From: Microlunatus soli
Lineage (GTDB): Bacteria; Actinomycetota; Actinomycetes; Propionibacteriales; Propionibacteriaceae
Reading direction: 5' to 3'
Length of the DNA stretch: 64,000 nt
NCBI RefSeq assembly: GCF_900105385.1
Contig: NZ_LT629772.1
Span: forward strand, 3,348,001 to 3,412,000
The position numbers were made by a program, and so were the translations under genes. The notes under the pieces are model-generated. The model searched no databases. It was not told the origin of the DNA and saw only the letters and a list, made by a program, of their open reading frames with translations. Below, piece by piece: positions 56,979-59,167 of this stretch (within the stretch, counting starts at the first letter, position 1; the number at the start of each line of letters is the position of its first letter).

Positions 56979-57458
56979 GTGCTCGGCCCCGTGATTGCTG
57001 GATTAGGCCTGCTGGCCTTGGGGACCGTGATCGGCCTGACGTTGTTGATCATGGTCCGATTCGGCATAGCCGCTCGGCGGTTGGACCGGGCGATCAGTGA
57101 GCTCACCGGCGGACGCCTTCGACACCCGGTCGAGCAACGGCTGGAGCACCGTCGCAACATCAAGGCCCTGAAAAATCAGTGTGGGATCCCGATCGAGCGA
57201 CTCAGCTTCGACCTGCGACGGCTGCGCGAATTGATCGCGCACAGCCACGGTTCGGCGACCCAGCAGTCCGCGCTGCGACAGGCCTACGACGGCGTCCTGA
57301 TGGACACCTGCAGGATGCTCGACGTGCCGCACGAGCTCGATCGTCCGACCGCCGGCCTGGAACGCGACATCGAACGGGTCCGGGTCGAGGCAGTGCTGGA
57401 GTCCCGCGGCATCGTGCTGAGCCGAGGTCATCGCCGGGATCAGAACGCGGACCACTGA
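56979..57458 (+). CDS. Membrane-anchored hypothetical protein
   Basis: 159 residues. A single transmembrane helix at the N-terminus (PVIAGLGLLALGTVIGLTLLIMV) is followed by a helical, basic cytoplasmic part (RRLDRAISELTGGRLRHPVEQR, HRRNIKALKNQCGI, ELIAHSHG). I do not recognise the family. The start is a GTG six bases after a good -10, suggesting a leaderless mRNA. It is monocistronic. Confidence 0.65.
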   Translation: MLGPVIAGLGLLALGTVIGLTLLIMVRFGIAARRLDRAISELTGGRLRHPVEQRLEHRRNIKALKNQCGIPIERLSFDLRRLRELIAHSHGSATQQSALRQAYDGVLMDTCRMLDVPHELDRPTAGLERDIERVRVEAVLESRGIVLSRGHRRDQNADH

Positions 57459-57515
57459 CCCCGGGACACCGGCGTAGTGCATCGTCCGCGATCCCTGCTG
57501 GTGAAGGAATAGAAG

Positions 57516-57535
57516 TCGTAACGGCCGTGTTACGA
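57516..57535. promoter_or_regulatory. 20-bp palindrome upstream of a small gene
   Basis: TCGTAAC-GGCCGT-GTTACGA at 57516-57535 has two perfect 7-base arms. It lies about 120 bases upstream of the 50-codon gene at 57657. Such a site would bind a dimeric regulator (TetR- or MarR-like in spacing); the regulator is not identified. Confidence 0.6.
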
Positions 57536-57656
57536 TTGGTGAGCCTTTCGACAGTGAGGTCCCTAGGTCTCACCCATCACCATCAGGCACCGATCCCCAG
57601 CCAGGAACGACGTTCGCGTCCGCCGGTGCCGACGTCGAAAGAAAGCAGGAACCCGC

Positions 57657-57809
57657 ATGTCCCGCCTCGGTAAGGCCATCCGCCGCCGTGAGGTCGCTCG
57701 TAGCCGCCGCGCTCTTGATCGCGCGATCGCTAATGCCCCCACTCCCGCAATGCGTGACGAGTTGATCATCGTCGCCCAGCGCGACGGACTGTTCCGCTCG
57801 GTCCGCTGA
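57657..57809 (+). CDS. Conserved 50-residue basic protein
   Basis: MSRLGKAIRRREVARSRRAL begins a 50-residue protein that ends AQRDGLFRSVR. A ribosome site (AGGA, seven bases before the ATG) supports it. The Arg-rich helical N-terminus followed by NAPTPAMRDELI matches short actinobacterial hypotheticals I have seen before, of unknown role. A palindrome lies upstream and a factor-independent terminator directly downstream, so it forms a complete small transcription unit. Confidence 0.75.
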   Translation: MSRLGKAIRRREVARSRRALDRAIANAPTPAMRDELIIVAQRDGLFRSVR

Positions 57810-57829
57810 CCGGCGGCTCTCGCAAACCC

Positions 57830-57861
57830 AAGGCTCCTGCACTTCGGTGTGGGAGCCTTTT
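57830..57861 (+). terminator. Factor-independent terminator
   Basis: AAGGCTCC (57830-57837) and GGAGCCTT (57852-57859) pair, with an inner CAC/GTG closing a TTCG tetraloop, followed by TT. It ends the small 50-residue gene 20 bases after its stop and precedes the sigma-factor gene. Confidence 0.8.
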
Positions 57862-57907
57862 GCTGCCCCCAGCAGCCGTGGATCCCTTTGTAGGCGAGGA
57901 TGCAGTG

Positions 57908-59167
57908 ATGATGACCGACCGGGACGTCGATGAGGTGCTGCGTCGCGCCCATGACGAGGAATGGGCCCGTGTAGTGGCGGCCCTGGCCGGCCGCTTCGGC
58001 GATCTCGACCTCGCCGAGGAAGCCGCGTCCGAGGCCTTCGTCACCGCGGTGGAGCGGTGGCCGACGGACGGCGTACCGGCCAATCCCGGCGGCTGGCTGA
58101 CCACCACCGCGACCCGCAAGGCGATCGATCGGATCCGGCGCGAGGGTCAGCGCCACGCCAAGCATCAGGCGGCGTTGTTGTTGTCCGACGACTCGCCTGC
58201 CGAGCCGACCGGGCCGGTCCGGGACGACCGTCTCCGGCTGGTCTTCACCTGCTGCCATCCGGCGTTGACGATGGAGGCTCGGATCGCGCTCACCCTGCGA
58301 CTGCTCGGTGGTCTCACCGTCTCCCAGATCGCCCGGGCCTTCCTGGTCAGCGAGACCGCGATGGCGCAACGGATCACCCGGGCCAAGGCCAAGATCAAGT
58401 CCGCGGGTATCCCGTACCGGATGCCGTCGGCCGACGACATCGATCGACGTCGGTCCGGCGTGCTGGCCGTGATCTATCTCGTCTTCAACGAGGGCTACCT
58501 GGCCGCCGACGGGGACGATCCGCTGCGGGTCGATCTGAGTGACGAGGCGATCCGGCTGGGACGGCTGCTGCATCAGCTGCTGCCGGCCGATGGCGAGGTG
58601 GTGGGGCTGCTGGCGCTGATGCTGCTCACCGATGCTCGGCGACCGGCGCGGCTGTCGCCCAGCGGCGAGTTGGTCACCCTCGACGAACAGGATCGTGCTG
58701 CTTGGGACCGGACACTACTGGCCGAAGGGCAGGAGCTGATCCGTGGCAGGGCCGAAGCCTTCGCCGCCGGAGCGGCTCCCGGACGCTACCAGGTGTTGGC
58801 CGCGATCAACGTCGTGCACACGACTGCGGCATCGACCCGGGACACCGACTGGTCACGGATCGTCGCGCTCTACGACCAACTGCTCCGACTCGAACCGTCA
58901 CCGATCGTGCGGCTGAACAGGGCGGTCGCGATCGCCGAGGTCGACGGCCCGTCGCCGGCGCTGGCCGAGGTCGATCGACTCACCGAACCGTTGGCCGGCT
59001 ACCACGCCTTTCATGTCGCGCGGGCCGATCTGCTGCGACGACTCGGACGGATCGCCGATGCGCGGGTCGCCTACGATCGCGCCGTCGAGCTCGCCGGCAA
59101 CTCTGCCGAGCGGGACCATCTCATCCGGCGACGCGACCAGCTCGGCGCACCGGGCCCGTCGAGCTGA
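57908..59167 (+). CDS. ECF42-type RNA polymerase sigma factor
   Basis: About 419 residues. The sigma-2 region has VVAALAGRFGDLDLAEEAASEAFVTAVERWP and NPGGWLTTTATRKAIDRIRRE; sigma-4 has LTLRLLGGLTVSQIARAFLVSETAMAQRITRAKAKI. The C-terminal ~230 residues form the SnoaL-less, TPR-like extension of the ECF42 group, ending RDQLGAPGPSS. ECF42 genes usually sit beside a YCII/DGPF gene; none is here. GAGGA lies seven bases before the ATG at 57908. The signal it answers is unknown. Confidence 0.85.
   Translation: MMTDRDVDEVLRRAHDEEWARVVAALAGRFGDLDLAEEAASEAFVTAVERWPTDGVPANPGGWLTTTATRKAIDRIRREGQRHAKHQAALLLSDDSPAEPTGPVRDDRLRLVFTCCHPALTMEARIALTLRLLGGLTVSQIARAFLVSETAMAQRITRAKAKIKSAGIPYRMPSADDIDRRRSGVLAVIYLVFNEGYLAADGDDPLRVDLSDEAIRLGRLLHQLLPADGEVVGLLALMLLTDARRPARLSPSGELVTLDEQDRAAWDRTLLAEGQELIRGRAEAFAAGAAPGRYQVLAAINVVHTTAASTRDTDWSRIVALYDQLLRLEPSPIVRLNRAVAIAEVDGPSPALAEVDRLTEPLAGYHAFHVARADLLRRLGRIADARVAYDRAVELAGNSAERDHLIRRRDQLGAPGPSS

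What the first reader, a model, noticed from the sequence alone, without database searches (positions are those of the whole stretch)
57516..57861. Complete small transcription unit for a 50-residue basic protein
A perfect 7-6-7 palindrome, a ribosome site, a 50-codon gene and a tetraloop terminator follow each other. The protein is short enough to be missed by gene finders and its tight control suggests a real job.
Basis: partly seen in the sequence, partly recalled or inferred. Interest (0 to 1): 0.55.

Follow-up and report, generated by a model that had tools for sequence, protein, structure and literature searches.

The report
Stress-promoter gene for small basic protein
A real, conserved gene for a 50-residue arginine-rich protein sits behind a promoter that looks like those switched on by oxidative stress in actinobacteria; the palindrome that drew attention to it is not conserved, and what the protein does is unknown.

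Summary
The gene is real. The protein occurs in at least 18 of 20 genomes of the genus, shows purifying selection in 78 of 78 pairs compared, and has weaker relatives in other actinobacterial families. The window protein matches no Pfam or NCBIfam family.

The palindrome is not conserved: 20 other loci lack it, and the window holds 18 perfect 7-6-7 palindromes against 9 in shuffles. What is conserved is GGAAT-N18-GTT, the published sigma-R motif: 16 of 21 loci, against a mean of 0.5 of 21 for 90 letter orders. In the same genome, trxB and a SigH_actino gene beside rsrA carry this type of site.

Best reading: a sigma-R-type thiol-stress gene for a small Arg-rich two-helix protein. Function is inferred only. 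Outside two families this promoter is nearly absent; in family f7, 14 of 20 homologs instead carry a TNAC-type direct repeat, whose GTNAC form the window's palindrome also fits.

The parts
57506..57510 (+). -35 element GGAAT of the proposed sigma-R (SigR/SigH-type) promoter
   Evidence: Sequence; GGAAT-N17-19-GTT in 16 of 21 homologous loci; matches GGAATN18GTT as given in PMC2375139 (passage)
57529..57531 (+). -10 element GTT of the proposed sigma-R promoter, 18 nt after GGAAT; overlaps a TANNNT hexamer TACGAT (57531-57536)
   Evidence: Sequence; consensus of alignment A3
57516..57535 (.).
   Evidence: MtrA-site wording from PMC13189361 (passage)
57537..57656 (+). Presumed 5' leader, about 115-120 nt (start of transcription not mapped); holds only a degenerate form (57545-57559) of the dyad seen at this place in relatives
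   Evidence: Alignment A3; folding not better than shuffles, z -0.8
57644..57651 (+). Ribosome-binding site AGCAGGAA
   Evidence: Sequence
57657..57809 (+). Gene for a 50-residue Arg-rich protein (12 R, 1 K, no C; computed pI 12.0)
57830..57861 (+). Hairpin with UUCG tetraloop and short T tail, probable intrinsic terminator
   Evidence: z -4.9; comparable hairpins in 17 of 21 loci; not listed by the consensus scan

Best explanation
This is a free-standing gene for a conserved small protein of actinobacteria. Its promoter is of the sigma-R (SigR/SigH) type, used in the response to thiol (disulphide) oxidative stress. Proposed course: an oxidant inactivates the anti-sigma factor RsrA; the freed SigR directs RNA polymerase to GGAAT-N18-GTT; a short mRNA with a leader of roughly 115-120 nt is made and ends at the UUCG hairpin; the 50-residue, strongly basic, two-helix protein accumulates. 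It has no cysteine, so it is unlikely to be a thiol sensor itself. It most likely acts by binding a negatively charged partner (RNA, DNA, ribosome) or a regulatory protein. Shown here: conservation, purifying selection, conserved promoter motif, the same type of site at trxB and the sigma gene, a conserved hairpin after the gene. Inferred: use by SigR, induction by stress, termination, and everything about the protein's action.
For: Protein in 16 of 20 genus genomes with the single sequence, two more with the profile. pN < pS in 78 of 78 pairs, means 0.18 and 0.48. GGAAT-N17-19-GTT within 200 nt upstream in 16 of 21 loci; 90 letter orders, the true one included, average 0.48 of 21, and the next best (9, 4, 3) look like shifts of the same site. 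Within the genus 14 of 16 loci plus L063 and L065. Background 12 of 650 windows of 200 nt, true sites included. Nine further family members: 5. Second family f36: 3 of the 6 loci looked at, of 7 found. Motif GGAATN18GTT in PMC2375139 (passages). Own genome: RsrA over cut-off beside a TIGR02947 SigH_actino sigma gene, 348 bits against a cut-off of 252, with GGGAATA-N15-CGTT (GGAAT-N17-GTT) upstream; the only thioredoxin reductase over cut-off has GGAAT-N18-GTT 211 nt before the matched domain. Model: two helices, mean pLDDT 82.6, single sequence. Computed pI 11.1-12.0 and no cysteine in 23 of 23 aligned proteins.
Against: 5 of 21 loci, 4 of 9 and 3 of 6 lack the motif, and nearly all loci of other families do: 1 match (GGAAC) in 11, 1 implausible match 13 nt from the start in 18. 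In f7 14 of 20 loci carry another kind of element. So the protein is not tied to SigR everywhere. A TANNNT hexamer overlaps the -10, so a housekeeping sigma factor could also read it. Of four strict sites in the genome, one (L070) precedes no obvious gene, and the window's own site does not meet that strict form. No expression data; no partner, activity, family or significant fold match.
Confidence: 0.7

Rival explanations
1. The gene is real but is transcribed mainly by the housekeeping sigma factor through the TANNNT hexamer; GGAAT-GTT is a minor feature and the protein is a general one.
For: A TANNNT hexamer is still there where GGAAT is missing (L006, L008, L018, by eye). Other families lack GGAAT.
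Against: GGAAT and GTT are kept at a fixed distance while the bases between them change. The scan for TTGACA-N16-18-TATAAT found none at 57300-58000.
Confidence: 0.18
2. The palindrome is a working operator in this species: read as a direct repeat GTNACN-N5-GTNACN it is one base off the Streptomyces MtrA site, so an OmpR-type regulator (MtrA-like) acts on this copy, possibly as a repressor because the second repeat overlaps the -10. This can be true together with sigma-R control.
For: MtrA site GtnAcC-n5-GTnAcn as quoted in PMC13189361 (passage). In family f7, [GT]TNAC-N6-[GT]TNAC lies within 170 nt upstream in 14 of 20 homologs against 0 of 891 random stretches, and among spacers 0-15 only 6 stands out (14; the next are 2).
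Against: GTNAC-N6-GTNAC is present in only 1 of 21 loci of the own family, the window's own. In f7 the second repeat lies upstream of the presumed -10 and does not overlap it (by eye). The reading was made after seeing the site.
Confidence: 0.2
3. Chance open frame between two real genes, with no product.
For: Short, and no family model.
Against: Present in at least 18 of 20 genus genomes, pN < pS in 78 of 78 pairs, conserved flanking elements.
Confidence: 0.02

Closest known systems
Sigma-R (SigR/SigH) regulon of actinobacteria, with anti-sigma factor RsrA
   Same: GGAAT-N18-GTT promoter; the same genome has RsrA, an adjacent SigH_actino sigma gene and trxB with the same type of site.
   Different: No direct evidence that SigR transcribes it; the passages I read do not mention such a gene, and I did not read any full regulon list.
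DUF1127 small arginine-rich proteins (YjiS and relatives; PMC12501420, abstract and outline read)
   Same: About 50 residues or fewer and Arg-rich.
   Different: 1 of 21 members gives a weak match to PF06568 (E 0.034); the window protein gives none.
DUF2795 (PF11387)
   Same: 6 of 21 members match weakly, best E 0.0051.
   Different: In 13 genomes searched the model matches in 2, at other places than the small gene; the window protein has no match.

Membership tests
Sigma-R regulon (promoter class) | GGAAT-N18-GTT upstream of the gene | tested here: met
   57506-57531, spacer 18; 16 of 21 loci with spacer 17-19; motif from PMC2375139
Sigma-R regulon (promoter class) | SigR/RsrA pair in the same genome | tested here: met
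   TIGR03988 87.5 bits, over cut-off; adjacent TIGR02947 348.2 bits, over cut-off
Sigma-R regulon (promoter class) | Transcription dependent on SigR and induced by thiol oxidants | not testable with these tools
   Needs RNA from wild type and a sigR mutant
DUF1127 (PF06568) | Match to the Pfam model | tested here: not met
   1 of 21 members at E 0.034; window protein none
DUF2795 (PF11387) | Match to the Pfam model over its cut-off | tested here: not met
   6 of 21 members weak, best E 0.0051; no match in the own genome at E 0.001
MtrA-controlled genes | Binding site GtnAcC-n5-GTnAcn | tested here: inconclusive
   Window site one base off; 1 of 21 family loci has GTNAC-N6-GTNAC; related repeats in 14 of 20 f7 loci
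Known solved folds | Significant sequence or fold match in the PDB | tested here: not met
   Profile search best E 2; Foldseek 0 matches at E <= 0.001

The most novel reading that the evidence does not exclude
The small Arg-rich protein is a stress-made mini-regulator that binds nucleic acid, RNA polymerase or the ribosome. Its gene has been rewired between regulators in different actinobacteria (sigma-R in two families, an OmpR-type direct repeat in a third), and in most genus relatives it is further gated by a dyad TTCGANNTCGAA on the presumed start of transcription, possibly bound by the protein itself.
Probability: 0.08. Interest if true: 0.65.

Novelty: new member of a known kind. Interest (0 to 1): 0.36.

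Why it matters
It adds a small-protein family for which the searches made here found no Pfam or NCBIfam model and which, in at least one genus, appears wired into the thiol-oxidative stress response. It is a single short gene, easy to delete and test, and its spread over several actinobacterial families with different upstream elements makes comparison possible.

Tried and rejected
Palindrome as a conserved operator: rejected for the genus and family, and such palindromes are common; a role in this species alone is kept as a rival.

Structured RNA leader: window leader z -0.8; four relatives z between 0.22 and -1.76. In alignment A3 I saw no compensating changes in the TTCGA/TCGAA arms (L004, L011, L016, L017 change one arm), so I read the block as DNA sequence; by eye, no pair count was run.

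Rfam: 0 matches in the window at gathering scores. Plasmid or phage family: no match with one protein each in three searches.

Functional neighbour: none inferred. Outside the own family no neighbour gene recurs beside the small gene except in pairs of related regions (L083/L086, L084/L087, L089/L090).

Leader dyad unique to the locus: it looked so at first (10 of 10 occurrences of TTCGANNTCGAA in L001-L021 are in leaders; TTCGANNTCGAANNNTTCGA in 8 of 20 genus genomes, in 7 of them at this locus and in the own genome only inside frames elsewhere). One search, with TTCGAWRTCGAA, gives matches in 18 of 19 genomes; by my count 15 of 19 have one away from the locus. I fetched 8 regions with 10 sites: 9 of 10 lie inside long mechanical reading frames, 1 between frames, but L167 and perhaps L161 show the same arrangement as the leaders (by eye). 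This weakens the self-regulation idea.

Corrections after checking: my notebook says 17 of 21 loci and GGGAATA-N16-CGTT; the right figures are 16 of 21 and N15. After I raised the operator rival from 0.12 to 0.2 and lowered the housekeeping rival from 0.2 to 0.18.

Rows left out: the pN/pS count used 13 of the 16 genus loci (L016, L017, L021, the most diverged, left out) and about 43 codons. A3 used the 16 genus loci, window included; its rows L003 and L004 begin inside the promoter. Of 7 f36 loci I read 6 (L131 not read). The f7 repeat test used 20 loci (L110, of another family, and L120, which looks spurious, left out).

Full report
OBSERVATION. The hairpin folds far better than shuffles (z -4.9), but its T tail is short, and the consensus scan did not list it; that scan listed the palindrome on the minus strand instead.

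IS IT A GENE? The protein was sought in 57 genomes, the own included: 20 match, 16 of the 20 of the genus, 4 of 13 others of the family, 0 of 24 from other families of the order. A profile (A1) added G014 and G017; G012 did not match, and G013 is not in the part of the listing shown. In one search, 20 of 245 order genomes match, all in the own family; the weakest, L066, looks doubtful. Over 43 aligned codons of 13 of the 16 genus loci, mean pS is 0.48 and mean pN 0.18, pN below pS in 78 of 78 pairs. This is a protein-coding gene under selection. Across the class 13 of 394 and, with a broader profile, 20 of 394 genomes match, own genome and one of its genus included; 14 of 101 in family f7; 7 of 40 in f36. 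The two class searches scored at most 17 candidates per genome, so misses are possible; some low-scoring hits (L110, L120) look spurious.

THE PALINDROME. A perfect 7-6-7 palindrome is not rare here: 18 in the window, 9 on average in 20 shuffles. None of the 20 other loci has this one within 250 nt upstream, the best having 4 to 7 mismatches of 14; three of them have some other perfect 7-6-7 palindrome. It can also be read as a direct repeat GTNACN-N5-GTNACN, one base off the Streptomyces MtrA site as quoted in PMC13189361 (passages). That reading gains weight from family f7: [GT]TNAC-N6-[GT]TNAC lies upstream of 14 of 20 homologs, 0 of 891 random stretches, and spacer 6 alone stands out. Among 21 loci of the own family only the window's has GTNAC-N6-GTNAC.

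THE PROMOTER. Upstream lie GGAAT (57506), 18 bases, GTT (57529). PMC2375139 (passages) gives GGAATN18GTT as the motif recognised by SigR of Streptomyces coelicolor. Of 21 loci (L001-L021, own copy included) 16 have GGAAT-N17-19-GTT within 200 nt of the start; the mean over 90 letter orders, the true one included, is 0.48. Ordinary 200-nt stretches of the same loci show it in 12 of 650, true sites included. The misses are L001, L006, L008, L018, L019. Within the genus it is 14 of 16 loci and also L063 and L065. Of nine further loci, those two included, five have it (L054 repeats the sequence of L001). In f36 three of six loci read have it, the last base of GTT read by eye. In other families it is essentially absent (1 of 11; 1 implausible of 18). 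Positive controls in the own genome: RsrA over cut-off; the neighbouring sigma gene is TIGR02947 SigH_actino over cut-off with GGGAATA-N15-CGTT upstream; the only thioredoxin reductase over cut-off has GGAAT-N18-GTT 211 nt before the matched domain. The stricter pattern GGGAATA-N15-17-CGTT occurs four times, the reversed control never: before the sigma gene, before a LigB-type dioxygenase gene, before a B12-binding, methylmalonyl-CoA-mutase-C-like gene, and once with no obvious gene. The window's own site does not meet that stricter form.

A SECOND ELEMENT. In 13 of the 16 rows of A3 (by eye, some with changed bases) a block like TTCGANNTCGAANNNTTCGA follows the -10, where transcription should start; the window, L007 and L012 lack it. 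It also appears in f36 (L126, L129 and L093 exactly, L127, L128 and L130 as variants). It is not exclusive to this gene. I read it as a possible operator for an unidentified regulator.

THE PROTEIN. 23 of 23 aligned members have computed pI above 11 and no cysteine. R33 is invariant in both alignments. AlphaFold2 from the single sequence gives helices 3-25 and 30-42, mean pLDDT 82.6, pTM 0.50. No significant family or fold match; weak hits to DUF2795 and DUF1127 fail as membership.

SURROUNDINGS. Among ten genus regions (window included) the 159-codon upstream gene is found in 10, the M50B gene in 9 and the FAD oxidoreductase gene in 8; in three regions (L073, L074, L082) the 159-codon gene lies further away. 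The window's pgi gene is confirmed. In the window an ECF-type sigma factor gene with a DUF6596 domain lies between the small gene and the M50B gene; in the eight relatives with the M50B gene it begins about 225-310 nt from the small gene's start. Among eight distant regions, neighbours recur only in pairs of them, apart from a DUF6596-type sigma match in L089 and one pair of far-off frames.

CONCLUSION. A genuine small-protein gene with a sigma-R-type promoter (0.7 for the whole statement; near certain that it is a gene). The protein's mechanism is inferred. Literature: seven searches, of which I saw the listings; outline and abstract of PMC12501420 and PMC11796252; passages of PMC4921905, PMC2375139, PMC13189361 and PMC10654065. 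Nothing I saw describes this protein, which does not show that it is undescribed. That SigR answers thiol stress through RsrA is from PMC4921905 (passages).

Noticed in passing
57909-59167: ECF-type sigma factor gene with a DUF6596 domain lies between the small gene and the M50B gene in the window; in the eight fetched relatives with the M50B gene it follows the small gene closely. A similar sigma gene lies 1.9-3 kb downstream of the small gene in one f7 region, L089.
   Followed up: partly
56979-57458: A 159-codon gene just upstream, with no Pfam or NCBIfam match, is found in 10 of the 21 regions compared, all ten of the genus.
   Followed up: no
1489-1508 and 2576-2595: Two identical 20-base palindromic sequences about 1.1 kb apart.
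   Followed up: no
L167 around 1236 and L161 around 1367: The dyad TTCGANNTCGAA with a downstream TTC extension; in L167 it stands after a TATATA hexamer before another reading frame, suggesting a regulator with further targets in family f36 (by eye).
   Followed up: partly
L045, L046, L047, L103-L109, L111, L112, L116, L117 upstream of the small gene: Direct repeats [GT]TNAC-N6-[GT]TNAC upstream of 14 of 20 f7 homologs, 0 of 891 random stretches, like sites of OmpR-type regulators such as MtrA.
   Followed up: partly
L068 and L069: Strict sigma-R-type sites also precede a LigB-type dioxygenase gene and a B12-binding mutase-like gene in the own genome.
   Followed up: partly
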